The notes under the pieces were generated by a model. That model was given only the letters and a program-made list of their open reading frames with translations, did not search any database and was not told the origin of the DNA. A stretch of 43,686 nt of DNA from Nitrospira sp. SB0677_bin_15 (GTDB taxonomy: Bacteria; Nitrospirota; Nitrospiria; Nitrospirales; UBA8639): assembly GCA_009842645.1 (NCBI GenBank), contig VYFB01000083.1, positions 1 to 43,686 of the forward strand, read 5' to 3'. This document shows positions 319 through 21,284 of the stretch, one piece after another; position 1 is the stretch's first letter; each line of letters starts with the position of its first letter. Position numbers and translations under genes: made by a program.

Positions 319-2964
319 ATGTCCTTAAGCGCCAATGAGCTTCGACGGTCGTTTCTGGATTTTTTTCGTGCGGCCGGCCATGCCGTCATTCCCAGCGCGT
401 CCCTGCTTCCCCAGGCTGATCCTACGCTGCTGTTCACCAACGCGGGCATGAACCAGTTCAAGCGGGTGTTCCTGGGAGAAGAACAGCGTTCGTACTCCCG
501 CGCCGTTTCCGTACAACGGTGCATGCGGGCCGGAGGCAAACACAATGACCTGGAAAACGTCGGGTATACCCGTCGTCATCACACGTTTTTTGAAATGCTC
601 GGCAATTTCTCGTTCGGCGACTATTTCAAAAAAGACGCCGTGCATTACGGCTGGGACTATTTGACGAAGACGCTGGGCCTGCCCGCGGAGCAGTTGTGGG
701 TTACGATCTTTCAGGACGATGATGAGGCGTTTGCATTGTGGGAGAAAAGCGTGGGCGTGCCTTCGACCCGGATCGTGCGGCTTGGGTACAAGGATAATTT
801 CTGGCAAATGGGGGAGACCGGCCCCTGCGGACCTTGTTCTGAAATTCACATCGATCAGGGCGCGGATCTCGGGTGTGGCGGGGTCGCATGTGCGGTGGGC
901 TGCGATTGTGACCGGTACCTGGAAATCTGGAACCTTGTGTTCATGCAGTTCGACCGCGACGCCGAAGGCAACCTGCATCCGTTGCCCAAACCCAGTATCG
1001 ACACCGGCATGGGGCTTGAGCGGCTGGCCGCCGTGGTCCAAGGCGCGGATAGCAATTATGCGACCGACCTGTTCATGCCGTTGCTTTCGGCGATTGCCGA
1101 CCGAACGGGTTGCGCCTACGGTAAGGCCGAAGCTTCCGATCGTTCCATGCGCGTGATTGCGGATCATTTGCGGGCCATCACGTTCATGATTGCGGATGGG
1201 ATTCTTCCATCGAACGAAGGCCGCGGATACGTGTTGCGACGGATTTTACGCAGAGCTTCCCGGCATGGACGGCTTCTGGGCGTCACCGAACCGTTTCTGC
1301 ATGAATTGACGGGTTCGGTGACGACTCAGATGCAAGGGGCCTACCCCGAACTGGCCGGTACAACTGAGACGTGTTGCACAATTGTCGAAGGTGAAGAGGA
1401 ACGGTTTATCGGCACGTTGGATCAAGGGTTACCCATCCTGAACCGTATGATCGGTGAAGCCAAGGCCGGAGCCCTGGACGGCGAGAACGTCTTCAAACTG
1501 TACGATACGTATGGCTTTCCCCTGGATTTGATCGAAGAAGCTGCCCGTGAACAGGGTTTAGTCACCGATCTCGAAGGCTTTCAAGGTGCGTTGGAAGCCC
1601 AGCGTGATCGGGCACGTCAATCGGCTGTTTTCGTCGCAGACCAGGAAAAACCATTCATTGCCGAATTGGCACAACAACTTCCTCCTACGGAGTTCCTCGG
1701 ATACCAGGCGCTTCAATCCGAGAGCGTGGTGCAGGTCATGCTTCAAGGAGAGGTTCCGGCGGAAGAAGTCGTGGAAGGGGATGACGTGGAACTGGTCCTG
1801 AATGCCACTCCCTTCTATCCTGAAGGAGGGGGACAGGTTGGCGATCAGGGTACGTTGACGGGCTCGGAGGGCCGAATTCAGGTCCGGGAAACCTCTAAGG
1901 TTGGCGGAAAATTCCTGCTTCACAAGGGAACGGTCGTGGCCGGACGCATTCGTAAGGGTGAGCCGCTGGTTGCGACGGTGGACTCGACGACCCGGCACGG
2001 CGCGGCCCGGAATCATACTGCCACCCATCTCCTCCACGCGGCGCTTCGAGAAGTGCTGGGCTCTCAGGTGAAACAATATGGCTCGCTGGTTGCCCCGAAC
2101 CGGTTGCGTTTTGATTTTTCCTATTTCAAACCACTCCGTACCCGGGATCTTGAAGAAATCGAAGCCATGGTTAATTTTCACGTGTTGGGCAACACGCTCG
2201 TCCAAACCGGCGTCATGGGTATCCAGGAAGCCATTCACGCCGGTGCCCTGGCGTTTTTCGGCGACAAGTACGGGGAACGGGTTCGCGTGGTGGGGATCGG
2301 GGAGTTCAGCAAGGAACTCTGCGGGGGCACGCATTGCCACCATACGGGTGAGATCGGTTCGTTCCGTATTACCTCCGAAGGCGGGGTTGCGTCAGGGGTG
2401 CGACGTATCGAAGCGCTGACCGGGACAGGGGCGTTGGAGCACGGGAAAAAACTCGAATCCGACGTCAGGGAATTAGCGGAATTGTTGAAAAGCAGCCCGT
2501 CAGAAATCGTGCCGAAAACCCGGAAACTCGTTGCCTTGTTGAAGGAAAAGGAGCGGGAACTCGAACGGCTCAAGTTGAAGTGGATGGATCAGAGCGCAGG
2601 CGGTGACAAGGCCCAAACCCGGGAGATTCGTGGTATTCCCGTCCACGTTCAGGAAGCCCAGGGTTTATCTATGCAGGAACTTCGGCTGTTTTCCGACAAA
2701 ATGCGGAATAAGGTGCCCAAGGGCGTCATTGCATTGGGCTCGGTTGCAGATAGCAAGGTCTCGTTATTGGTGATCGTGTCTCCGGATCTGACCCACACGT
2801 TGCAAGCCGGGAAATTGATTAAGGAAATGGCACGCGACGTTGGCGGATCTGGCGGGGGACGACCCGAAATGGCTCAAGCCGGCGGGAAGCATCCTGAAAA
2901 ATTGGGTCGGGCTCTCGAAAAAGTGTTTGACTTGGTCGAAGCGCAGGTTTCGGAACAGTCGTGA
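319..2964 (+). CDS. alaS: Alanine--tRNA ligase
   Basis: AlaRS of 881 residues, close to the usual bacterial length, charging tRNA-Ala in the cytoplasm. The class II catalytic core is recognisable from the start (LFTNAGMNQFK, residues near 35-45), followed by the tRNA-recognition region. The editing domain has the zinc motifs HTATH (near 566) and CGGTH (near 668), which hydrolyse mischarged Ser/Gly-tRNA-Ala. A coiled coil and a C-terminal C-Ala domain follow. I chose ATG 319 because the family N-terminus (SANELRRSFLDFF) begins there and AAGGGGA lies 6 nt upstream. The open frame before it is repeat DNA. mltG follows after a REPIN and leader. Confidence 0.97.
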   Translation: MSLSANELRRSFLDFFRAAGHAVIPSASLLPQADPTLLFTNAGMNQFKRVFLGEEQRSYSRAVSVQRCMRAGGKHNDLENVGYTRRHHTFFEMLGNFSFGDYFKKDAVHYGWDYLTKTLGLPAEQLWVTIFQDDDEAFALWEKSVGVPSTRIVRLGYKDNFWQMGETGPCGPCSEIHIDQGADLGCGGVACAVGCDCDRYLEIWNLVFMQFDRDAEGNLHPLPKPSIDTGMGLERLAAVVQGADSNYATDLFMPLLSAIADRTGCAYGKAEASDRSMRVIADHLRAITFMIADGILPSNEGRGYVLRRILRRASRHGRLLGVTEPFLHELTGSVTTQMQGAYPELAGTTETCCTIVEGEEERFIGTLDQGLPILNRMIGEAKAGALDGENVFKLYDTYGFPLDLIEEAAREQGLVTDLEGFQGALEAQRDRARQSAVFVADQEKPFIAELAQQLPPTEFLGYQALQSESVVQVMLQGEVPAEEVVEGDDVELVLNATPFYPEGGGQVGDQGTLTGSEGRIQVRETSKVGGKFLLHKGTVVAGRIRKGEPLVATVDSTTRHGAARNHTATHLLHAALREVLGSQVKQYGSLVAPNRLRFDFSYFKPLRTRDLEEIEAMVNFHVLGNTLVQTGVMGIQEAIHAGALAFFGDKYGERVRVVGIGEFSKELCGGTHCHHTGEIGSFRITSEGGVASGVRRIEALTGTGALEHGKKLESDVRELAELLKSSPSEIVPKTRKLVALLKEKERELERLKLKWMDQSAGGDKAQTREIRGIPVHVQEAQGLSMQELRLFSDKMRNKVPKGVIALGSVADSKVSLLVIVSPDLTHTLQAGKLIKEMARDVGGSGGGRPEMAQAGGKHPEKLGRALEKVFDLVEAQVSEQS

Positions 2965-3010
2965 GCCCGTTGCATTGTTGATATGAAAAGAGACAACAAC
3001 ACCTCGAACT

Positions 3011-3103
3011 GTCATTCCCGACGTTAGTAATCGGGAATCCAGTGTCTTTTGTCTTCACCAACAAAAAACCCCTGGATCCTCGATTAAAAATGTCGAGGAT
3101 GAC
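3011..3103. repeat. REPIN-like paired palindrome, copy 2
   Basis: The left hairpin (3011-3042) runs GTCATTCCCG to CGGGAATCCAG and the right hairpin (3072-3103) runs CTGGATCCTCG to CGAGGATGAC. The right arm carries compensatory changes (TCCTCG with CGAGGA), so base pairing is conserved while sequence varies. Confidence 0.85.
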
Positions 3104-3156
3104 AGATTAGAGAGATTTTCATCCCTTGGGGTGCAGGCAGCAGGCCTGCATGGGGA
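3104..3156 (+). promoter_or_regulatory. mltG leader with GCAGGC/GCCTGC hairpin
   Basis: After copy 2 comes AGAGAGATTTTCATCCCTTG, then TGCAGGC, a short loop, and GCCTGCA, then GGGG before the start codon. The block closely matches 33183-33240 upstream of the rluB-like gene and more loosely the alaS leader. Function unknown. Confidence 0.5.
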
Positions 3157-3159
3157 TTG

Positions 3160-4179
3160 ATGGTCAAAAAGGTCCTCCTCGTCATTTCGGGCGTTCTCAT
3201 CCTCGTGGCCGGCTGCGGATTCGCAGTGCTGGGTCAACTCCAACCTGTCGGCAATGCCTCGCAGGTCGTTGTTTTGGATATTGTCGAAGGTTCTTCTTTG
3301 TCCGACGTTGCGGAACGATTGCACCGCCAGGAGCTGATCAAAAGCGATTGGGCGTTTGTCTGGTTGGGCCGTCTCTCCGGATCGGACCGTAAAGTCATTC
3401 CGGGGGAATATGAATTTCATGGAGGTATGGACCCCTCGCTTATTCTGGAGAAGATCATCAGGGGTGAGGTCATCCAGTATGCAGTCACGATCCCCGAAGG
3501 CTTTTCGGTGAGCCGGATTGCCGATTTATTGCACGAAAAACGCTTGGCCGATCGTGAGGAGTTTCTTCAATGCACCAGGGACCCGGTTTTCATTGAAACC
3601 CTGTCGCTGTCCGTCGATAACCGCGTCGATAATCTGGAAGGCTATCTTTTTCCCGATACCTATCAGTTTGCCCGTCACGTGGCGCCGGATCGATTGATTG
3701 CGACGATGGTGGCCCGGTTTAAGCAAACCGTGACGGAGGAAGACCGGCGGCGAGCCGCGGAATTGGGCCTATCCATGCACCAGGCGGTCACGTTGGCCTC
3801 GGTGATTGAAAAAGAAACGGCCAAGCCGGATGAACGTACCTTGATTTCCGGGGTGTTTCATAATCGACTACGAAAGAACATCCCGCTGCAGAGCGACCCA
3901 ACGGTCATTTACGCCTTGAATGGATTTGACGGTAATCTCCGCAAAAAGGACCTGTCGATCGACAGTCCTTACAATACTTACCGGGTCGTGGGGTTGCCCC
4001 CCGGCCCTATTGCCAATCCGGGAAGCGCCGCGTTTCGTGCGGCCCTCTATCCTGAGCCGAGTCAGTACCTGTATTTCGTGTCACGCAACGACGGAAGCCA
4101 TGAATTTTCGGCAACGCTTGCCGAACATAACCGGGCCGTGAGGAAATATCAGTTGCGCGAACGTCGTCGTACCTCGTAA
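3160..4179 (+). CDS. mltG: Endolytic murein transglycosylase MltG (YceG-like)
   Basis: MltG family protein of 339 residues. It cleaves nascent peptidoglycan strands within the chain, in the periplasm and anchored in the inner membrane. Residues about 3-25 form one hydrophobic segment. A LysM-like part follows (DIVEGSSLSDVAERL), then the YceG domain with the catalytic glutamate in SVIEKET (Glu217) and the FHNRL and LQSDPTVIYAL blocks typical of the family. A TTG lies at 3157 directly before ATG 3160; GGGG at 3152-3155 could serve either, and I prefer ATG. The RidA-like gene starts 9 nt after the stop, so co-transcription is likely. Confidence 0.93.
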   Translation: MVKKVLLVISGVLILVAGCGFAVLGQLQPVGNASQVVVLDIVEGSSLSDVAERLHRQELIKSDWAFVWLGRLSGSDRKVIPGEYEFHGGMDPSLILEKIIRGEVIQYAVTIPEGFSVSRIADLLHEKRLADREEFLQCTRDPVFIETLSLSVDNRVDNLEGYLFPDTYQFARHVAPDRLIATMVARFKQTVTEEDRRRAAELGLSMHQAVTLASVIEKETAKPDERTLISGVFHNRLRKNIPLQSDPTVIYALNGFDGNLRKKDLSIDSPYNTYRVVGLPPGPIANPGSAAFRAALYPEPSQYLYFVSRNDGSHEFSATLAEHNRAVRKYQLRERRRTS

Positions 4180-4188
4180 TCTTCCCGC

Positions 4189-4656
4189 ATGATGTCTTTC
4201 GAACAGCGCGTCACGTCTCTTGAACTGGCCTTGCCGGCGCCTCCCCAGCCAGTGGCCACCTACGTGCCCTCCGTCCGAGTCGGCGACCTGCTTTTCATCA
4301 GTGGCGTGGTGCCCAGCCGTGACGGGCAGATTGTCTTTCAGGGAAAGGTAGGGCGTGATCTTTCCAAGGAAGAAGGCTATGAGGCGGCCAAGGTATCGTT
4401 GCTCAATGCCCTGGCCAATATTCGTCAGGCCGCAGGTTCTCTTGACCGGGTACAACGGGTTGTCAAGATGACGGGATACGTGGCCTCTCACGAAGGATTC
4501 AGGGAACAGCCTTACGTAATCAACGGCGCATCCGATTTGCTGGTGACAATCTTTGGGGAGGCCGGCCGTCATGCCCGCGCAGCCGTGGGAGTGGCCGAAT
4601 TGCCTCTGGGAGTTCCGGTCGAGCTCGAATTGACCGTCCAACTGCTGCCTCTGTAA
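4189..4656 (+). CDS. RidA/YjgF/UK114 family protein
   Basis: A 155-residue protein of the RidA (YjgF/YER057c/UK114) superfamily. RidA proteins hydrolyse reactive enamine/imine intermediates from PLP enzymes; other subgroups have unproven roles. The C-terminal part (HARAAVGVAELPLGVPVELE) is the family signature, and its arginine matches the substrate-carboxylate-binding arginine of active RidA. The N-terminal extension of about 25 residues and the overall length fit the longer subgroup rather than the ~128-residue archetype, so deaminase activity is not certain. Two consecutive ATG codons (4189, 4192) make the start ambiguous by one residue. It sits between mltG and a secreted HEAT-repeat protein. 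Confidence 0.85.
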   Translation: MMSFEQRVTSLELALPAPPQPVATYVPSVRVGDLLFISGVVPSRDGQIVFQGKVGRDLSKEEGYEAAKVSLLNALANIRQAAGSLDRVQRVVKMTGYVASHEGFREQPYVINGASDLLVTIFGEAGRHARAAVGVAELPLGVPVELELTVQLLPL

Positions 4657-4680
4657 CCTGAGCGCCTGCCGGTTTTCAGG

Positions 4681-5586
4681 ATGAGGATGAACACGTACAT
4701 GCAATGGGTGCTCCCGGTCGTCGTGGCGGTCTGTGTGCTTGTCTGCGAACAGGTCGCGGCGCAGGTGCGGTATTTGACCGACCGGAACGTTTTTCCTTCC
4801 ATCAGCAGGGCCAACACGATTTACGTGGACGTGCAGGCTTCGAGTTGGAAACCGCGCGGCAGGTTGCTGTGGGATCCTCCGGCGGACATTCGAGCCAAGT
4901 TGATTGCGGTGGGTTTCGAGATCGTGCGGGAGAAGACTCACCCGCACGCGTTGACCTTGACGGGTTCGTATGAGGAAACCAGAGGTAGGCAGTTTGGCAT
5001 CAATCGATACGGCACTGTGCTGACGGGCACGTTCAGGATCGACCATCACGAAAAAGGCCCGTTGTTTGAAATGACGATTCAAGAAAGAGCCGTGCTGACA
5101 CCATCGGGAACCTTGCCCTACCTCGACTCCCTGCATAATTTTTTAACCAATCCTTACTATCATTTTCTCGGAGAAATCATAGACGGACAGATTCATCGCA
5201 ACCAGGACGCCCATGCCGTTTTCCTGAAAGAGTTGCACGCCAACGTTGTCCGCGATGCCGCCCCACAAGTATCCGATAACCCCGAATGGATTCCCGAAGG
5301 TATCCATAGCATGCAACAGGCTCATACACTGTATGAGCCAGTGGCCACCAGACGCACGATTGGAGAGTTCGTACAGGCGGAAGACAACAGTATCGTCGAT
5401 CTTTTGCCGAATCTGCTGAACCATCCTGACGTGTACGTCAAGGTACGCAGCATTGAGGCCTTTGGAGAGTTCGGCGTCACGGAAGCCCTTCCCCTGTTGC
5501 AGGGGCTGAAAAAAAACGCCCAGGAGGTTGAGGTTAGAAACGCTGCTTCTGCAACGATTTCCCGTTTGACCAAAACTTCGCCATAA
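4681..5586 (+). CDS. Secreted protein with C-terminal HEAT-like repeats, unknown function
   Basis: A 301-residue protein I cannot assign to a named family. A signal peptide covers about residues 8-28 (WVLPVVVAVCVLVCEQVAA), so it is probably periplasmic. The middle (about 30-170) contains a predicted beta-rich segment with a GTVLTGTFRIDHH-type strand pattern. The last ~75 residues (LLPNLLNHPDVYVKVRSIEA, then a second helical pair) look like two HEAT/PBS-lyase-type repeats, usually protein-binding. Start codons at 4681, 4687 and 4699 are all possible; the overlapping AGGATGAGG makes 4687 attractive. It begins 24 nt after the RidA-like stop and a strong terminator follows. Confidence 0.7.
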   Translation: MRMNTYMQWVLPVVVAVCVLVCEQVAAQVRYLTDRNVFPSISRANTIYVDVQASSWKPRGRLLWDPPADIRAKLIAVGFEIVREKTHPHALTLTGSYEETRGRQFGINRYGTVLTGTFRIDHHEKGPLFEMTIQERAVLTPSGTLPYLDSLHNFLTNPYYHFLGEIIDGQIHRNQDAHAVFLKELHANVVRDAAPQVSDNPEWIPEGIHSMQQAHTLYEPVATRRTIGEFVQAEDNSIVDLLPNLLNHPDVYVKVRSIEAFGEFGVTEALPLLQGLKKNAQEVEVRNAASATISRLTKTSP

Positions 5587-5645
5587 CCCCTCACTACCGA
5601 GTGTTGCCGTTGGTTGACGGCAAAAAGTACGTCGTTATACAGTAT

Positions 5646-5689
5646 AAAGTGGCCGCGTCATCTGCTGTGGTGCGGCCACTTTACGTTTT
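5646..5689 (+). terminator. Rho-independent terminator after the alaS-mltG gene block
   Basis: AAAGTGGCCGC (5646-5656) pairs perfectly with GCGGCCACTTT (5672-5682), an 11-bp stem with a 15-nt loop, followed by ACGTTTT. It lies 60 nt after the HEAT-repeat gene and before the TIG gene. Confidence 0.85.
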
Positions 5690-5707
5690 AAGTCTCTGGA
5701 TGTGTAG

Positions 5708-5770
5708 CCCCCCTCACCCCAGCCCTCTCCCGCGGTGGGGAGAGGGAGTTAATGGGGAGAGGGGGCGTGA
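5708..5770. repeat. CCCTCACCCCAGCCCTCTCCC-type hairpin repeat
   Basis: CCCTCTCCC (from 5723) pairs with GGGGAGAGGG (to 5746) around a short GCGGT loop, followed by a further GGGGAGAGGGGG. The same repeat type appears near 14335-14395 and 23970-24003. Confidence 0.75.
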
Positions 5771-5824
5771 GTTTCAATATGAAGTATCAGTTTTGACAGG
5801 TAACAACAGAAAGGTATGTTCGAT

Positions 5825-7483
5825 ATGAGACACGTGTTTATTGCTTTACTGGTCGTTTGTATAACGGCTTCATTTGTCCAGGCTGAATTGTTTCCGGCCT
5901 CGGGACCTCCGGGGGTGACGGTGACGATCGGCGGGTCCGCGTTCGGGGAGTTTGTTTCGACGGCGGAGAATCGGGTGGATTTCAACGGCGTGCCCGCGTT
6001 GATTCAGCTCTGGGAACCTGACTTGATCATGGTCAAGGTGCCGCTGGGCGCCAAGAGCGGTGACGTCAACGTGTCGGGACCGAAAGGCACCGTGGTGGCA
6101 GGCCGGTTTGCCATTCAGCAGGTGAAGATTACCAGGTTGATGCCGCCGGAAGCGGAACCCGGCTCGGTGCTCACGATCGAGGGTGAGCATTTCGGCAATA
6201 CTGCAGGATCACGCGATCCCAATACCATGTTTGGCGTGAACCGCGTGTTGATCAACGGCATTCTGTCGGAAATCCTGAAATGGCGGCCCGGGAAGATTGA
6301 CGTCAAGATCCCGGCCAATGCCAAGTCCGGTGACGTGATCGTGCAACTGGCTTCCTCTGATCCGCTGCCGGATGGGTCCTGTTGTGCGCCGGTCAAATAT
6401 GCCGAGAGTAATCGCATGTCGGTTTCCTTGATCCCCAGTATTTCGTTTGCGCCGAATCGAGGGCCAGTCGGAACCAAGGTCGTGCTGAGCGGGCAACAGT
6501 TCGGTGACGCCAAAGGGCCGAATGATGCGATTACAATCGGCGGCAAACCCGTGACGATTGCCAAATGGGCGCCGCGCACCATCGTGGTCCACGTGCCGCT
6601 TAACGCCGTCAGCGGGCCCGTGACGTTTCAACAGGACGGGCGTGCGAGGACTTTGGGCCAATTCGAATTGGTCGAACCCGGATCCGATGGGCTGTTCCCG
6701 ACTCAAGGACCGATCGGCACCTTGGTTTATATCAAGGGGAAAAATTTCGGAGTCTTTTCCGAAGCGGGGAGTACGGCGTATGCGTTCGATTTCGATCCCG
6801 GTCAGAACCGTGTGGAAATTGGCGGGGTTCCGGCCATTATTCACCGATGGCAGGATAATGAAATCAACGTATGGGTTCCCTATAGCGCCAAGTCCGGTCC
6901 CGTTGTCGTGAAGCGGGGCGGTACAATTCCCAACCCCGATGGGACCTGTTGTGCCAAGCAGGACGTCGTCGACTTGGAAGTGGGCTTATTTACCGTGCAG
7001 ACGCCAAAGGTCACGTCCTACTCTCCAAAGGAAGCCGGCATCGATGAGATCGTGACGTTGAAGGGCGAAGGGTTCGGCGAGTTTCTGAAAATCGCGGAGG
7101 CGACGCGCTTGGAATTGAATACCGATGCCCATGATTGGAAGAACTATCGACTGGGGCCCGACGTTTCACGCACGGAAGTGCTGGTGAACGGGGTTGCGGC
7201 CGTTGTGGTCTCCTGGAAGGATACCGAAATCAAGGTTCAGGTGCCCAGGCGGCACGTGTTCGGGTTCGGGCATCCCGAAGGATTTTACGTTGATCCCACC
7301 AAAGGGGAAATCGTCGTGCGTCGCGGGTCCTGGGATTTACTCAAGAATGGCCGGTGCTGTTCACGGAAGCAGTGGCAGAGCGCCGTGGCAGGCGAATTCA
7401 AGATTCTGCCGCGGGGATTGCCCCACAAGGAATTTTTCTACGATTACACGCAAGAACCTTGGAGGACCGACCAAGCGCCGTGA
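5825..7483 (+). CDS. Secreted TIG/IPT-repeat protein
   Basis: A 552-residue exported protein. Residues 1-20 are a signal peptide ending near VQA. The rest is a tandem of about five IPT/TIG immunoglobulin-like domains, seen as repeated FGE/FGD, VxINGxxAxIxxWxxxxIxVxVP and SGxVxV patterns. Three repeats carry a near-identical insertion with a vicinal cysteine pair (DGSCCAP, DGTCCAK, NGRCCSR). I chose ATG 5825 over ATG 5816 because AAAGG (5810-5814) is correctly spaced from 5825 and the signal peptide then starts cleanly. The YCF48-like gene overlaps its last 4 nt, so the two are probably translated together. TIG domains are often adhesive or scaffold modules; the actual role is unknown. Confidence 0.82.
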   Translation: MRHVFIALLVVCITASFVQAELFPASGPPGVTVTIGGSAFGEFVSTAENRVDFNGVPALIQLWEPDLIMVKVPLGAKSGDVNVSGPKGTVVAGRFAIQQVKITRLMPPEAEPGSVLTIEGEHFGNTAGSRDPNTMFGVNRVLINGILSEILKWRPGKIDVKIPANAKSGDVIVQLASSDPLPDGSCCAPVKYAESNRMSVSLIPSISFAPNRGPVGTKVVLSGQQFGDAKGPNDAITIGGKPVTIAKWAPRTIVVHVPLNAVSGPVTFQQDGRARTLGQFELVEPGSDGLFPTQGPIGTLVYIKGKNFGVFSEAGSTAYAFDFDPGQNRVEIGGVPAIIHRWQDNEINVWVPYSAKSGPVVVKRGGTIPNPDGTCCAKQDVVDLEVGLFTVQTPKVTSYSPKEAGIDEIVTLKGEGFGEFLKIAEATRLELNTDAHDWKNYRLGPDVSRTEVLVNGVAAVVVSWKDTEIKVQVPRRHVFGFGHPEGFYVDPTKGEIVVRRGSWDLLKNGRCCSRKQWQSAVAGEFKILPRGLPHKEFFYDYTQEPWRTDQAP

Positions 7484-8469
7484 AAGTCGTTTCATCCTCT
7501 TTTTATGCTCTCCTTCACTTGATGGTCTTGGGCTTGGTCTGTCTCCCGGGCTTGGCGGGACAGGTCCAAGCCGAAGAAAACGTGGTTTCGACCATCCAGA
7601 AGAGCGGCACGAAATCCACGCTCCTCGGGACGTTCTTTGTGAGCGCGCAACACGGCTGGGCCGTGGGCGCGGGGGGAACCGTCCTGAAAACGGAGGATGC
7701 GGGAGAGACGTGGCAGGCAGTCACGCGCCGCACCGCGGCCCTGTTGACCAGCGTCTATTTTACTGATCCTCAACACGGGTGGATCGTCGGGCAGAATGGG
7801 ACTATCCTGCATACGAACGATAGCGGAAAACAGTGGCGCCGGCAGGTTGCCGGATTTGGGGCCGCACTCTATGACGTGTTTTTCCTGAATCCTTCGCAGG
7901 GCTGGATCGTCGGAGGCCGAGGTACCATTTTGCGGACCGCGGACGGTGGCGCGACGTGGGAGGATCAAAGCAGTTCGACCGCGGTGGATTTGTTCGGCGT
8001 ACAATTCATCGATGCGCAACGCGGGTGGGCGGTCGGTGCGATCGGAACAATCCTCGTCACGCAAGACGGCGGACAAAACTGGATTCAACAGGCGACCGAC
8101 AGTGCCACGACGTTCTTCGATCTGTATTTTACGGATCCTGAAGGTGGCTGGGTCGTGGGCTCCCAGGGTGCCATCTTTCAAACGATCACCAGTGGAGAAA
8201 AATGGGTTGATCGTACCCTGCCGTGCGGGTCTCCCTGTATCAGGCCGCCGGATTTTTTGAAAGTCCAGTTTACCGGGTTCCGGGCCGGGTGGATCATTGG
8301 CGAGCGAGGCGCGTTTCTGACCACCACGGACGCCGGTTTCACGTGGACCAAACCGGAACTCTCCGAGCCCTTCAGCCTCTATGGGTTATCCTTTCCGGAC
8401 CCCAAGGTCGGCTGGGCCGTGGGCGACGGCGGAATTATCCTCAAGATCGCGCCAGCGTCTTCCTCCTAA
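7480..8469 (+). CDS. Secreted YCF48/BNR-like seven-bladed beta-propeller
   Basis: A 329-residue protein starting at GTG 7480, which overlaps the TIG stop in GTGA; GGAGGA lies 13 nt upstream. Residues 1-30 form a signal peptide (LMVLGLVCLPGLAGQVQA). Seven blades follow, each with a GWxVGxxGTIxxTxDGGxxW core, the pattern of YCF48/Hcf136-like and BNR-repeat proteins. YCF48 assists photosystem II assembly in phototrophs; similar proteins in non-phototrophs have no settled role, so photosynthesis must not be inferred. One blade carries an extra CGSPC motif. The overlap suggests a partnership with the TIG protein at the cell surface or in the periplasm. Confidence 0.82.
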   Translation: MKVVSSSFYALLHLMVLGLVCLPGLAGQVQAEENVVSTIQKSGTKSTLLGTFFVSAQHGWAVGAGGTVLKTEDAGETWQAVTRRTAALLTSVYFTDPQHGWIVGQNGTILHTNDSGKQWRRQVAGFGAALYDVFFLNPSQGWIVGGRGTILRTADGGATWEDQSSSTAVDLFGVQFIDAQRGWAVGAIGTILVTQDGGQNWIQQATDSATTFFDLYFTDPEGGWVVGSQGAIFQTITSGEKWVDRTLPCGSPCIRPPDFLKVQFTGFRAGWIIGERGAFLTTTDAGFTWTKPELSEPFSLYGLSFPDPKVGWAVGDGGIILKIAPASSS

Positions 8470-15229: not shown

Positions 15230-16102
15230 TTATTGAGAGGACGTGGGAAGCACGTCCAGACTGACATCGACCGCGGGCGCGGAATGGGTGAGTGCCCCGA
15301 TGGAAATGGAGTCCACACCCGTGGCGGCATACTCGCACACGTTCTCCAGTGTTATACCTCCCGAGACCTCGACGTGGGTCTTGCCTTTGATGAGGTCTAC
15401 GGCTTTCCGGACAAGCGCGGGGGGCATATTGTCCAGGAGCAGCACGTCAGCCCCGCCGTCCAGGGCCTCGATAACGTGCTTGAGGTTCTCGACTTCCACG
15501 CAGATGCGGAACTGACGGGAGACTCGCTCTCTGGCTTTGCGACAGGCTTCGCGGATGGTTGTGCCTTGGGCTTCCAACAACACCAGGTGATTGTCCTTGA
15601 TGAGGACTCCATCGCTTAGTGTCATGCGATGGTTGGTTCCACCCCCGAGAGCGACCGCCCATTTTTCAAGCCGGCGAAGGCCGGGAATCGTTTTTCTGGT
15701 ATCGACGAGGACAGCAGGATACTGCCGGATTTCGGCTTTGAATCGTGCGGTCAAGGTAGCGATGCCGGAAAGACGTTGCAAAAAATTCAGCGCCACCCGT
15801 TCCCCACCCAAAATTGAATGCGCCGGTCCTTGAAGGGTGGCGAACGTCTGTCCGGCTTCAAGGGGCTCGCCATCCTGGAACGCGGCCGTTACCGTCACGG
15901 CAGGGTCCAGGACCCGATACACGGCGTGGAGCACTACGACACCGGCAAGGGTCAGGTCCTGCTTGGCGACGACGTGGGCTTGCGCCTGAAGTGACGGATC
16001 AAGGAGCGCGCGCGTGGTGACGTCGCCGTGTGGCACGTCTTCCTTCAGCGCCGCTGCGACCAGCGTTTCAAGTTCAAAAGGTGGCAAGGGAGTGGATGCC
16101 AT
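15230..16102 (-). CDS. nadC: Nicotinate-nucleotide pyrophosphorylase (carboxylating), quinolinate phosphoribosyltransferase
   Basis: NadC of 290 residues. It converts quinolinate and PRPP to nicotinate mononucleotide in de novo NAD synthesis. Family blocks are KEDVPHGDVTTRAL, ALNFLQRLSGIATLT, VDTRKTIPGLRRLEKWAV, LIKDNHL, and VEVSGGITLENV. I chose ATG 16102 because GGAGG sits 5 nt before it; the ATG at 16114 would use part of that ribosome-binding site as codons. It is followed at 12 nt by birA. The endonuclease gene ends about 50 nt upstream on the same strand. Confidence 0.95.
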   Translation of the reverse strand: MASTPLPPFELETLVAAALKEDVPHGDVTTRALLDPSLQAQAHVVAKQDLTLAGVVVLHAVYRVLDPAVTVTAAFQDGEPLEAGQTFATLQGPAHSILGGERVALNFLQRLSGIATLTARFKAEIRQYPAVLVDTRKTIPGLRRLEKWAVALGGGTNHRMTLSDGVLIKDNHLVLLEAQGTTIREACRKARERVSRQFRICVEVENLKHVIEALDGGADVLLLDNMPPALVRKAVDLIKGKTHVEVSGGITLENVCEYAATGVDSISIGALTHSAPAVDVSLDVLPTSSQ

Positions 16103-16105
16103 TAA

Positions 16106-16112
16106 TCCCTCC
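16106..16112 (-). promoter_or_regulatory. Shine-Dalgarno that fixes the nadC start
   Basis: Minus-strand GGAGGGA lies just before ATG 16102. The same bases would be coding if the upstream ATG 16114 were used, so the downstream start is favoured. Confidence 0.6.
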
Positions 16113-16155
16113 ATAATACGGACGACGTTAAGTTATCCGTCCAATTGCGATCTGT

Positions 16156-17076
16156 TTAGAAGTGTCCCTGCTGCAGCACCTTATCGGTTTCCGGTGCTTT
16201 GTCGTCAATGGCTTTCTGAATTTTGTCAAGCATGCGCTGAAATACATCTACGGCGTACTTTGATTTCTCTAGGAATTCGATATACTCGTCTCTGAGGATT
16301 TGCCTTTCTTTTGCATTTCTGTATTCTTGACGGATGTTCGACGAAATCCGCTTTGCTTTTCTGATGATCAAAACGTCGTCAATATATGTCGATGTGATGG
16401 AAACCGGCGTCATGTCGAGGAACTCGCATACGAGAAAATAAAGGGAAGACGGAATTGCGATCTTCAGGTTGCGGCTTGTGGCAACAGCCTCTTGGAACAT
16501 GGTCTTGTCGAGATTTGTCTTACATTCTGCGCATATATAGCCCAAGTGTGTCTTTATGTCTTCAGCATCATGAAATTCGTGGTCGAATGATGTTTTGATA
16601 TACAAGCGTTTCCCAAGGATGAAGTCCTGATCTTTGGTCATGAGACGAGGACAACCTGCGATCCCAGGATTTGCAATCGACGATGCAAAATTCAACCCAG
16701 TGAACGTCTTGCGCGGCCCCATCTCGAAATGATTTTTAGGCCATCTCAATCCCCGATAGAGCAAATGAGGAAGAAATTCCTCAATGATTGTATTGTCGAG
16801 CTTTAACTGACCTTTCTGTCGGTAGAGAAAATCATTCGGGCTGTTGAAAATCAACTCCAGCTCAATATATGTTTTATATCGATCTGCAGCTTCTACCAGC
16901 CTTTGAACCGAGTCTTTTTGCCCCCTTTTCACGTTTTCAAGTTCACTGATCCAGTTATGATAGTGCCGAATTGCTTCTTCGACTCTAGGTTTGTCGCCTT
17001 GGGGGAGGCGTTTGTTGGCACGGAGTGCTTCAAGTTTATCCAAATGCGGTGTCGATAACTCTAAATCGGCATTCAT
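16156..17076 (-). CDS. Type II restriction endonuclease, Bpu10I-like family
   Basis: A 306-residue protein resembling the RE_Bpu10I family, from memory of blocks such as NDFLYRQKGQLKLDN, ECKTNLDKTMFQEA and KAKRISSNIR. A PD-(D/E)xK nuclease site is plausible: KDQDF (148-152) with ECK (184-186). The ATG overlaps the methyltransferase stop in ATGA, the usual order of modification gene first. Upstream in-frame codons to 17136 overlap the methyltransferase and lack support. Base composition is visibly more AT-rich than valS and nadC, consistent with horizontal acquisition. Target sequence is unknown; a lone subunit would more easily cut a symmetric site than the asymmetric CCTNAGC of Bpu10I. Confidence 0.75.
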   Translation of the reverse strand: MNADLELSTPHLDKLEALRANKRLPQGDKPRVEEAIRHYHNWISELENVKRGQKDSVQRLVEAADRYKTYIELELIFNSPNDFLYRQKGQLKLDNTIIEEFLPHLLYRGLRWPKNHFEMGPRKTFTGLNFASSIANPGIAGCPRLMTKDQDFILGKRLYIKTSFDHEFHDAEDIKTHLGYICAECKTNLDKTMFQEAVATSRNLKIAIPSSLYFLVCEFLDMTPVSITSTYIDDVLIIRKAKRISSNIRQEYRNAKERQILRDEYIEFLEKSKYAVDVFQRMLDKIQKAIDDKAPETDKVLQQGHF

Positions 17077-18314
17077 GTTGGTTTTCCCTCTTTTACCATC
17101 ATTACACCATCTCTTGTCTGATATTGGGGGTAGCAAGAGCTGTTAAAAATCGGTGTGCCGGTAACCTGATCGATACGAGAAATTGCATCGAGAAGCAGGG
17201 TTTTATTTTCATCGGGGGCGTTTCCCACGGCTGCATTCAGCAAGCATCGAGCCGCGTCGCGTCCGAGGACTGTAGGCAAGTTGTTATCGTCTCTGTATTT
17301 TTCTCTTTCAAGATTTAGAACATCTTCCCTGATCATCTCGCCGTAGCGGTTTTTGAAGATTCTTTGTTGGCGGAGGATAAGACGGAACATTTTCGACTCG
17401 CAAGCAAGTTGTTCGACAATCCTGGCATTGAAAAATGGTGTGCCTAACACCTGGGATTGATGCCCAAGGATCAGCACGGCACGTCCACCTGTCCTTAGAA
17501 CTCTGGCTAATTCTTGGATCACGCTTCCCATATCAATGCAGTATTGAATCACGGTATAAAATCGGTTGCCTCGATTGGCACGATTGGAACCGATTTCGGA
17601 ACGAGCCACGCGAAGCAGATTCCAGCCCAGTACTTCGACCGAACGTCTGTAGTTCTGATGATAATTGAACACGTTGAGATAGGGCGGAGACGTGACCGCA
17701 AAATCGATCGATTGTTCTTGAAGCGGGAGTGCCCTTGCATCTTCCAGATCCGCCTTGATCGGACGATTGGAATATGGAAGTTGACGAATCAACGAAATCA
17801 AGGTTAGGAATTTGCGTTGAATCAAATCGCAGGAGATTCGGTTCTTGTAGATGTCCAGGAGCACGACTAGGGAATTAAAAATGATTTTTGCCGAATCGCT
17901 GAGTGATTCCCCGATGCGGGTAACTATTTCTTTGAACTCGTCTTCTTTTAGCTCGATTTCTTCAGAAAAAAATGACGTTGGAAATTCATGATTGATCCTC
18001 TTTTGGAGTTCCATTATTGCCTCTTCTCTTTCTTCAGAAGACGCCATGGTAAATTCGTAAAGTTTGCTGAAGCTCCACGCAGATGGGTTAATCTCAAATC
18101 CAAACGCAGGAAGAGACAGGGTGGCGGCTTCGTAGAGAACTGTGCCGCTTCCGGCAAATGGATCAAGAACGACTGAGCCTGGCAAACAGTATGCTGTGAG
18201 CAAGGATTCAATAAGTTGCGGAGAGAATTGTCCTCGCCACGCAAAAAGATTAGATCGGGTTTTCTCTTGGATATTCAGAGATTCCTGGGGTATTGGTTTC
18301 GAGAAATCTTTCAA
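17073..18314 (-). CDS. DNA methyltransferase (amino-type, TSPPY), partner of the Bpu10I-like endonuclease
   Basis: A 413-residue SAM-dependent DNA methyltransferase. Motif I is DPFAGSGT (51-58), preceded by RGQFSPQLIESLL; the catalytic motif IV is TSPPY (208-212). TSPPY marks cytosine-N4 or adenine-N6 methylation, not 5-methylcytosine, whose PCQ motif is absent. The motif I before IV order differs from the beta-class orphan enzyme at 36321. The start is TTG 18314 with AAGGTG 4 nt upstream. It overlaps the endonuclease by 4 nt, forming a compact cassette inserted between valS and nadC on the same strand. It should protect the host site cut by the endonuclease. Confidence 0.88.
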   Translation of the reverse strand: MKDFSKPIPQESLNIQEKTRSNLFAWRGQFSPQLIESLLTAYCLPGSVVLDPFAGSGTVLYEAATLSLPAFGFEINPSAWSFSKLYEFTMASSEEREEAIMELQKRINHEFPTSFFSEEIELKEDEFKEIVTRIGESLSDSAKIIFNSLVVLLDIYKNRISCDLIQRKFLTLISLIRQLPYSNRPIKADLEDARALPLQEQSIDFAVTSPPYLNVFNYHQNYRRSVEVLGWNLLRVARSEIGSNRANRGNRFYTVIQYCIDMGSVIQELARVLRTGGRAVLILGHQSQVLGTPFFNARIVEQLACESKMFRLILRQQRIFKNRYGEMIREDVLNLEREKYRDDNNLPTVLGRDAARCLLNAAVGNAPDENKTLLLDAISRIDQVTGTPIFNSSCYPQYQTRDGVMMVKEGKPT

Positions 18315-18375: not shown

Positions 18376-21123
<2,748 letters not shown>

Positions 21124-21284
21124 AGAGATGAAACTCACGCTGACAGAGCGAAAAATCTTAGCATGGGGGGTAGCCCCTCGCAAGCAAAGCGCCGGGTGGC
21201 TGCTGTCTCAGTTTGAATTTTCCCGCCTTCAATTTCTTGGCTCATTCCATCCCAGAGTGTGGTAGTATTTTTTCTGACGTCACT

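What the first reader, a model, noticed from the sequence alone, without database searches (positions are those of the whole stretch)
16156..18314. Bpu10I-like endonuclease paired with a TSPPY methyltransferase
The compact RM cassette pairs a Bpu10I-like nuclease with an N4-cytosine/N6-adenine-type methyltransferase, whereas, as I recall, the Bpu10I system itself uses 5-methylcytosine enzymes and two nuclease subunits. A single nuclease subunit suggests a different, perhaps symmetric, target. The cassette splits the minus-strand order valS - nadC.
Basis: partly seen in the sequence, partly recalled or inferred. Interest (0 to 1): 0.55.

Follow-up and report, generated by a model that had tools for sequence, protein, structure and literature searches.

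The report
Symmetric relative of Bpu10I restriction system
A Nitrospira bacterium carries a compact two-gene system, one DNA-methylating enzyme and one DNA-cutting enzyme, that probably protects and cuts the symmetric sequence CCTNAGG, making it an ordinary-looking but informative relative of the two-subunit enzymes Bpu10I and BbvCI.

Summary
Window 16156-18314 (minus strand) is an intact two-gene restriction-modification cassette: an amino-type (TSPPY) DNA methyltransferase overlapping by 4 bp a nuclease that matches RE_Bpu10I (E=1.6e-93) and, as a predicted fold, BbvCI subunit 2 (Z 26.8). It is the only RE_Bpu10I match in a 99%-complete genome; both C5 methyltransferases lie elsewhere, each beside a Vsr gene. 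A cassette-free congener has valS and nadC 5 bp apart, so the cassette is an insertion. The same pair recurs across phyla (71 two-gene loci and 11 fused in one frame, of 88 examined). Positions that the BbvCI paper ties to base reading are Asp/Arg, as in BbvCI R1, plus the Met that goes with any central base; this predicts a homodimer cutting CC|TNAGG. By z-score that site is the most depleted gapped palindrome in sampled own genome and in pooled carrier loci, and carriers rank lowest in three matched groups; across Nitrospirota the difference is not significant (p=0.11), and several ungapped palindromes are more depleted. A sister branch with Lys/Asn and a C5 methyltransferase fits GCTNAGC. 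It is a new member of a known kind; target and methylated base are inferred.

The parts
17073..18314 (-). Amino-type DNA methyltransferase (413 aa, TTG start), motif I before motif IV with a helical insert between them
   Evidence: PF01555 E=1.3e-14; model pLDDT 92.7; purifying selection against G302, dN/dS 0.188
18141..18164 (-). Motif I, DPFAGSGT (AdoMet binding)
   Evidence: direct reading of the translation; D51 P52 F53 G55 S56 T58 invariant in 52 rows
17679..17693 (-). Motif IV, TSPPY (catalytic; the form I recall as typical of N4-cytosine enzymes)
   Evidence: direct reading; S209 P210 P211 Y212 invariant and T208 nearly so in 52 rows
17073..17076 (-). 4-bp overlap ATGA: start of nuclease gene, stop of methyltransferase gene
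   Evidence: sequence
16156..17076 (-). RE_Bpu10I nuclease (306 aa, ATG start), PD-(D/E)XK fold
   Evidence: PF09549 E=1.6e-93; AlphaFold pLDDT 91.2, BbvCI R2 Z 26.8 over 272 residues; dN/dS 0.129
16624..16626 (-). Catalytic Asp151 (BbvCI R1 D140 / R2 D146)
   Evidence: alignment to BbvCI, Asp in 88 of 88 loci
16519..16527 (-). Catalytic E184-C185-K186 (BbvCI R2 E177-C178-K179)
   Evidence: alignment, Glu and Lys in 88 of 88 loci; paper PMC6326814 section 11
16498..16509 (-). Recognition loop D190-K191-T192-M193; Met at the place that the BbvCI paper ties to the central base pair (Met = any base)
   Evidence: PMC6326814 sections 18-19
16414..16416 (-). Asp221, equivalent of BbvCI R1 D204 (proposed outer C:G reader)
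16348..16350 (-). Arg243, equivalent of BbvCI R1 R227 (proposed outer C:G reader)
15230..16114 (-). nadC, downstream flank; host gene
   Evidence: 5 bp from valS in the cassette-free congener G081
18376..21183 (-). valS, upstream flank; host gene

Best explanation
A Type IIP-like restriction-modification cassette of the Bpu10I/BbvCI nuclease family. The methyltransferase gene comes first; its product methylates both strands of its site in host DNA. The nuclease, a PD-(D/E)XK enzyme whose gene overlaps the first by 4 bp, pairs with a second copy of itself and cuts unmodified incoming DNA at the symmetric site CC|TNAGG, leaving 3-base 5' overhangs as BbvCI does. The methylated base is most likely a cytosine at N4, because the motif is TSPPY (recalled usage). 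Shown here: intact genes, family and predicted fold, single nuclease match, conserved pairing, purifying selection, insertion at valS/nadC. Inferred: homodimer, coupled translation, target, methylated base, defence role.
For: Family and fold. Single nuclease match, C5 methyltransferases next to Vsr genes. Pairing: 71 two-gene loci, methyltransferase-then-nuclease on one strand in all 71, plus 11 fused, of 88. Asp/Arg outer readers in 86 of 87 rows of this branch (the 87th, L050, is cut before them) and Met in 87 of 87. CCTNAGG avoidance: lowest z of 64 gapped palindromes in 663 kb from 84 carrier loci, 33 seen against 81.8 expected, ratio 0.40, and 0.41 and 0.40 in the two halves; lowest z of 64 in 351 kb of the own genome (27 against 39.2) but rank 19 in the cassette-free congener G081 (54 against 56.1). 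Ratio CCTNAGG/CCTNAGC: the two carriers are the two lowest of 14 in the genus (chance 1 in 91); the Endomicrobium carrier is lowest of 40 (0.036; next 0.568) and the Azoarcus carrier lowest of 40 (0.138; next 0.28). Internal contrast: G243, whose nuclease has Lys/Asn, is lowest of 46 for GCTNAGC (0.017), with CCTNAGG at 0.644.
Against: Across Nitrospirota the CCTNAGG ratio of 7 carriers is not significantly below that of 38 chosen non-carriers (p=0.11); carriers G228 (1.38) and G241 (1.26) show no avoidance, and G339 is poor in GCTNAGC (0.034) rather than CCTNAGG (0.70). In that comparison GCTNAGC is lower in carriers (p=0.0009). In the own genome the depletion is mild (z -1.95; by ratio two rare palindromes are lower; ungapped palindromes such as GTCGAC reach z -6.2) and the count per megabase is within the genus range. 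In the pooled loci ungapped CTGCAG, CTCGAG and others are also more depleted by z, so part of the effect may be general palindrome avoidance. Ten of 11 cyanobacterial carriers counted are poor in both palindromes and do not discriminate. In the Azoarcus sample five gapped palindromes rank below CCTNAGG (rank 6 of 64). The outer-base residues rest on a proposal in the BbvCI paper, not on a DNA complex. No activity, dimer or methylation was measured.
Confidence: 0.75

Rival explanations
1. A symmetric homodimer of the same family with another palindromic target, such as GCTNAGC or CTNAG.
For: GCTNAGC is third-lowest of 64 in pooled loci (100 against 126.7) and lower in the 7 Nitrospirota carriers than in 38 chosen non-carriers (p=0.0009); carrier G339 has 33 GCTNAGC sites. 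The own genome is also the lowest of 14 for GCTNAGC (0.631).
Against: Asp/Arg rather than Lys/Asn at the outer readers. In the Endomicrobium family the carrier lacks CCTNAGG only, GCTNAGC ranking 31 of 40; in the Azoarcus family GCTNAGC ranks 11 of 40; in the own genus the other carrier G302 ranks 8 of 14 for GCTNAGC.
Confidence: 0.14
2. Half of a Type IIT heterodimer of the Bpu10I/BbvCI kind whose second subunit was missed because the genome is in 156 contigs.
For: The closest solved relative is half of a heterotetramer; BbvCI subunits are inactive alone (PMC6326814). The genome is fragmented.
Against: 99% completeness and one match only. None of the 88 loci showed a second nuclease gene next to the first; where two hits occur they are pieces of one (L043, L049, L050, L096) or, in L054, a weak tail of the methyltransferase frame. 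One methyltransferase, where Type IIT systems in general have two (PMC4081073 passage).
Confidence: 0.05
3. A degenerate or silent cassette in which only the methyltransferase still works.
For: Decay is seen in the family: the nuclease frame is split in 4 of 88 loci (L043, L049, L050, L096) while the methyltransferase stays open; avoidance in the own genome is mild.
Against: Both genes are open, catalytic residues intact, and dN/dS against G302 is 0.129 for the nuclease and 0.188 for the methyltransferase, near the 0.12-0.18 of four flanking housekeeping genes.
Confidence: 0.06

Closest known systems
BbvCI (CC|TCAGC), Type IIT; structures 6eg7, 6m9g, 6maf, 6mag
   Same: Same fold over nearly the whole length (Z 26.1-26.8, 259-272 residues aligned); same catalytic D...E-x-K; recognition loop three residues after the Lys.
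   Different: BbvCI needs two different subunits and an asymmetric site; here one subunit, with R1-like outer residues and R2-like Met at the central position.
Bpu10I (CC|TNAGC), Type IIT
   Same: Same Pfam family, named after it; predicted site shares the CCTNAG part.
   Different: Bpu10I is described as a heterodimer (PMC4081073 passage); its methyltransferases are recalled as C5-type (paper not held); here one subunit and an amino-type enzyme.
Bsu36I (CC|TNAGG)
   Same: Same predicted site, symmetric, and named in PMC6326814 as a relative with Met at the central position.
   Different: Its sequence is not in the tools, so identity, methyltransferase type and gene order could not be compared. 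This may be the same kind of system outright.
BlpI (GC|TNAGC)
   Same: Relative of BbvCI with Met at the central position (PMC6326814); its site is the one predicted for the sister branch L017, L109, L111, which has Lys/Asn and a C5 methyltransferase.
   Different: The window enzyme has Asp/Arg and an amino-type methyltransferase.
Pandoravirus CCTNAGG methyltransferase (PMC7253447)
   Same: Same site; that paper reports N4-methylcytosine in the pandoraviruses surveyed (passages). A later paper calls these enzymes 5mC, citing the same work (PMC12700378 passage).
   Different: Not associated with a nuclease. Its sequence was not found (one search returned only generic methyltransferase hits), so kinship is untested.

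Membership tests
RE_Bpu10I nuclease family (PF09549) | Profile match over curated cut-off | tested here: met
   312.8 bits against 25, full profile 1-218
RE_Bpu10I nuclease family (PF09549) | BbvCI fold and PD-(D/E)XK residues | tested here: met
   Z 26.8, rmsd 2.9, 272 aligned, predicted model; D151, E184-x-K186
Type IIT (Bpu10I/BbvCI kind) | Two different nuclease subunits or catalytic sites | tested here: not met
   One PF09549 match in the genome; no second nuclease gene seen in 88 loci
Type IIT (Bpu10I/BbvCI kind) | Two accompanying methyltransferases | tested here: not met
   One methyltransferase in the cassette; C5 genes are on other contigs with Vsr neighbours
Type IIP | One nuclease gene and one methyltransferase gene | tested here: met
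   gene content only
Type IIP | Symmetric site cut within it | not testable with these tools
   Inferred from residues and avoidance; needs cleavage mapping
CCTNAGG (Bsu36I) specificity | Met at the central-base position; R1-like outer Asp/Arg | tested here: met
   DKTM, D221, R243; the outer pair is the paper's proposal, not proven
CCTNAGG (Bsu36I) specificity | Avoidance of CCTNAGG in carrier genomes | tested here: inconclusive
   Seen in pooled loci and three matched groups; not significant across Nitrospirota, p=0.11; ungapped palindromes are also avoided
Amino (N4/N6) DNA methyltransferase | Motif I and (D/N/S)PP(Y/F)-type motif IV, profile match | tested here: met
   PF01555 E=1.3e-14; DPFAGSGT and TSPPY
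N4-cytosine methyltransferase | Methylates cytosine at N4 | not testable with these tools
   TSPPY is suggestive by recalled usage; fold comparison gives Trm11-type tRNA enzymes as nearest (Z 17.9), which does not decide the base

The most novel reading that the evidence does not exclude
The Bpu10I family splits into two single-nuclease branches with one residue code: Asp/Arg reads an outer C:G and travels with an amino-type methyltransferase (CCTNAGG), Lys/Asn reads an outer G:C and travels with a C5 methyltransferase (GCTNAGC). The heterodimers BbvCI and Bpu10I are chimaeras, one subunit from each branch. Several times the first branch has also become a single protein, methyltransferase then nuclease, that cuts inside a palindrome.
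Probability: 0.4. Interest if true: 0.6.

Novelty: new member of a known kind. Interest (0 to 1): 0.38.

Why it matters
The authors of the BbvCI structure speculated that the heterodimer arose from symmetric enzymes of the Bsu36I and BlpI kind (PMC6326814, discussion section read). The window cassette and its relatives supply many natural candidates for the first kind and a few for the second, with a residue difference that predicts the outer base pair and so makes the idea testable by mutation and by mixing subunits. Practically, it predicts enzymes for CCTNAGG in an unstudied Nitrospira and in other phyla, including fused single-chain forms.

Tried and rejected
Missing second subunit or C5 partner: searched and not found as a partner.

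Nuclease relatives in phage and plasmid records: none by tblastn with the window nuclease nor, in plasmids, with the L024 nuclease; no methyltransferase match in phage records. The first viral-contig scan with the single nuclease gave none; the alignment scans gave 8 loci for the methyltransferase, four of them only short matches, and 4 for the nuclease.

In the fold comparison of the methyltransferase no N4-cytosine DNA enzyme is among the 50 rows shown, which excludes nothing.

Chimaera test by tree: BbvCI R1 joins the amino branch and R2 the C5 branch (98/94), but R1 is only 46% filled, branches are long, and with specificity columns masked the support falls to 87 and the alternatives are not rejected (p-AU 0.30 for R1 with the C5 branch, 0.35 for R2 with the amino branch, 0.15 for R1 with R2). 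So this is suggestive only.

Third C5-type nuclease L113 has Glu/Asn, and its genome G438 shows no depletion of CCTNAGG (rank 14 of 40) or GCTNAGC (rank 35 of 40); its target is left open. Promoter-like hits are at chance (3 against 3.1), terminator-like hits 6 against 3.0. Repeats: four weak two-copy families and one 14-nt inverted pair, none framing the insertion. I did not search for an integrase.

Papers: PMC6326814 abstract, sections 3, 11, 17, 18, 19 and passages read; PMC7253447, PMC4081073, PMC1459862, PMC12700378 passages only; PMC147350 not held. The listings of searches showed no title on this cassette, but REBASE and most subscription journals are outside the library, so no claim of absence is made.
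Full report
WHAT IS THERE. The minus strand of window 18314-16156 holds two genes. The first, 413 codons from TTG 18314, is an amino-type DNA methyltransferase (PF01555 E=1.3e-14). Motif I (DPFAGSGT) precedes motif IV (TSPPY), with about 150 residues, largely helical in the model, between them. The second, 306 codons from ATG 17076, is a nuclease that covers the whole RE_Bpu10I profile (E=1.6e-93). The genes overlap as ATGA, with GAGGG just upstream of the ATG. The mechanical ORF starts at TTG 17136, but the G302 orthologue starts at the ATG.

FOLD. The nuclease model (pLDDT 91.2) matches BbvCI subunit 2 over 272 residues with Z 26.8 and rmsd 2.9; the next family, PspGI, scores Z 10.2. The catalytic residues D151 and E184-x-K186 line up with those that mutagenesis identified in BbvCI (PMC6326814 section 11). 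The methyltransferase model (pLDDT 92.7) has an AdoMet-dependent methyltransferase fold, nearest Trm11-type tRNA enzymes (Z 17.9). The fold comparison does not decide which base it methylates.

ONE SUBUNIT. The genome (2.55 Mb, 156 contigs, 99% complete) has one RE_Bpu10I match. Its two C5 methyltransferases lie on contigs C102 and C94, each directly next to a Vsr mismatch endonuclease gene. So neither looks like a missing partner of the cassette.

AN INSERTION, KEPT INTACT. In G302, a congener, the same pair sits at the same place between valS and nadC. In G081, a congener without an RE_Bpu10I match, valS, nadC, birA, coaX and grpE are contiguous and valS stop and nadC ATG are 5 bp apart; this is the only cassette-free congener in which the site was found. 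The cassette genes have GC 44-46% against 55-60% for four neighbours. Against G302 they have dN/dS 0.129 (nuclease) and 0.188 (methyltransferase); the four neighbours give 0.12-0.18. The insertion is therefore foreign in composition, shared by two species, and under purifying selection. No repeats frame it; an integrase was not searched for.

HOW COMMON. In Nitrospirota 8 of 395 genomes have a match. Seven of the eight, the window's own included, pair the nuclease with the same methyltransferase; the eighth (G243, L017) pairs it with a C5 methyltransferase. A scan of a collection of 84,980 species' genomes gave 400 pattern matches, 344 confirmed as relatives, of which the best 80 loci were kept. 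I examined 88 loci: the window, 7 Nitrospirota loci and these 80, three of which (L020, L064, L082) repeat Nitrospirota loci. 71 (68 without the repeats) have separate methyltransferase and nuclease genes, in that order on one strand in all 71, and 11 have both in one reading frame. Of the other six, L017 is the C5 form; L033, L090 and L092 are cut by contig ends; L053 and L058 show no methyltransferase although 5 kb upstream were held. In four (L043, L049, L050, L096) the nuclease frame is broken while the methyltransferase is open; in L054 the methyltransferase frame runs 77 bases into the nuclease frame. The fused forms need 8 changes on a quick tree, at least 6 if only strong branches count, so fusion or fission recurred. 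Carriers span many phyla, including Cyanobacteriota, Planctomycetota, Myxococcota, Candidatus Poribacteria, Bacteroidota, Elusimicrobiota and an archaeon, which suggests lateral spread; many are metagenome bins.

WHICH SITE. The BbvCI paper (PMC6326814, sections 18-19) shows by mutation that the fourth residue of a loop beyond the catalytic Lys reads the central base, and says that Bsu36I, BlpI and Bpu10I, which accept any central base, have Met there. It proposes that R1 D204 and R227 read the outer C:G and R2 K214 and N236 the outer G:C. The window enzyme has D190-K191-T192-M193, and D221 and R243 at the outer positions. In the alignment of 88 loci Met is present in 88 of 88 and Asp/Arg in 86 of the 87 rows of this branch (L050 is cut before them); the third loop residue differs in L048 (Pro) and L058 (Ala). 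The 88th row, L017, has Lys/Asn, as do L109 and L111, and these three go with C5 methyltransferases. This gives two predictions: CCTNAGG for the window branch and GCTNAGC for the other.

TEST BY AVOIDANCE. The CCTNAGG prediction came from the residues and the paper; the first count with it (genus, raw numbers) showed no obvious carrier effect, and it was written down afterwards. The GCTNAGC prediction for L017 was not written down before its count. (a) Carrier loci with cassette genes masked, 84 loci and 663 kb: CCTNAGG has the lowest z of 64 NNN-N-NNN palindromes, 33 against 81.8 expected; the two halves of the family give 0.41 and 0.40. The window alone has 2 sites against 7.3 in shuffles. 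(b) Own genome, 351 kb sampled: CCTNAGG has the lowest z of 64, 27 against 39.2, z -1.95; cassette-free congener G081, 400 kb: rank 19, 54 against 56.1. Endomicrobium carrier G425, 142 kb: none against 5.6 expected, rank 1 of 58. (c) Ratio CCTNAGG to the mixed site CCTNAGC, whole genomes (from counts): own 0.477 and G302 0.546 are the two lowest of 14 in the genus (next 0.607; chance 1 in 91); the Endomicrobium carrier is 0.036, lowest of 40 (next 0.568), its GCTNAGC ratio ranking 31 of 40; the Azoarcus carrier is 0.138, lowest of 40 (next 0.280; one of the 41 genomes was left out for the handle limit), though in a 319-kb sample of it CCTNAGG ranks 6 of 64. (d) G243, Lys/Asn: GCTNAGC 0.017, lowest of 46, CCTNAGG 0.644. 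Whole-genome counts were made for 34 of the 80 carrier loci from other collections; apart from the Endomicrobium and Azoarcus carriers these have no matched non-carriers, and their ratios run from 0.012 to 1.192.

RESULTS AGAINST. Over Nitrospirota the CCTNAGG ratio does not separate 7 carriers from 38 non-carriers that I chose out of 387 (p=0.11), whereas GCTNAGC does (p=0.0009), as does the product of the two (p=2e-5). G228 and G241 show no CCTNAGG depletion. G339, of the same genus as G243, lacks GCTNAGC although its nuclease is of the window type. By raw count per megabase the own genome is within its genus's range, and the own genome is also the lowest of its genus for GCTNAGC. Ungapped six-base palindromes are more depleted by z than CCTNAGG in the pooled loci (CTGCAG z -7.7), the own genome (GTCGAC z -6.2) and the carrier samples, so general palindrome avoidance contributes. 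Of 11 cyanobacterial carriers counted, 10 have both ratios low (CCTNAGG 0.012-0.195, GCTNAGC 0.004-0.123) and cannot discriminate; G408 has 0.446 and 0.390. Avoidance also records past enzymes.

PHAGE SIDE. Four viral contigs encode full-length relatives of the methyltransferase. L100 has the whole cassette. L102 has the methyltransferase without a nuclease in the stretch held. By eye L103 keeps only about the first 16 residues of the nuclease and L101 about its first third. L101, L102 and L103 also carry phage-type genes: DNA helicase, DNA polymerase and terminase large subunit respectively. This fits phages that took the methyltransferase as protection, which is inference. A C5-type cassette (L111) sits between major head protein and head maturation protease genes of a prophage-like contig.

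ORIGIN OF THE HETERODIMERS. A tree places BbvCI R1 with the window branch and R2 with the C5 branch (98/94), as the paper's speculation would have it. With specificity columns masked the support falls to 87 and alternatives are not rejected (p-AU 0.30 and 0.35; 0.15 for R1 with R2). It is a lead for better sampling.

VERDICT. The thing should work like a Type IIP restriction-modification system. By gene content it is not Type IIT. Its nuclease is a member of the RE_Bpu10I family. Because Bsu36I is already known to cut CCTNAGG and to be related to BbvCI, I file it as a new member of a known kind. The two-branch residue code and the fused forms are the parts worth following.

Noticed in passing
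L018 (own genome C102:10000-24000), 444-7608: C5 methyltransferase, Vsr, HATPase, Z1 and DUF4420 genes in one cluster: a second, different restriction-like locus in the same genome.
   Followed up: partly
L021, L022, L023, L026, L028, L029, L030, L036, L055, L056, L098: Methyltransferase and nuclease fused in one reading frame of 711-786 codons; at least six changes forced on the tree.
   Followed up: partly
L101, L102, L103: Phage contigs with the cassette's methyltransferase and no intact nuclease next to it (a truncated start, none, a stub), with phage replication or packaging genes nearby.
   Followed up: partly
L111:3610-5678: C5-type methyltransferase and nuclease cassette inserted between major head protein and head maturation protease genes of a prophage-like contig.
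   Followed up: partly
G242 (same genus, no RE_Bpu10I match): CCTNAGG 11, GCTNAGC 35 and CCTNAGC 12/18 sites in 1.9 Mb while the backward control of CCTNAGG has 1346: the CTNAG contexts counted are all scarce, as if by an enzyme for CTNAG (DdeI's site, recalled).
   Followed up: no
Cyanobacterial carriers G403-G406, G427: CCTNAGG and GCTNAGC both nearly absent (5-40 sites each in 5-12 Mb) while CCTNAGC has over 1000 on each strand.
   Followed up: no
G339 (L014): GCTNAGC strongly depleted (33 sites in 3.3 Mb) although its only RE_Bpu10I nuclease is of the predicted CCTNAGG type; same genus as G243.
   Followed up: no
L113 (G438): A further C5-type cassette whose nuclease has Glu/Asn at the outer positions; its genome is not depleted in CCTNAGG or GCTNAGC.
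   Followed up: partly
L043, L049, L050, L096: Cyanobacterial loci whose nuclease frame is split while the methyltransferase is open; L049 and L050 also have a C5 methyltransferase just downstream.
   Followed up: no
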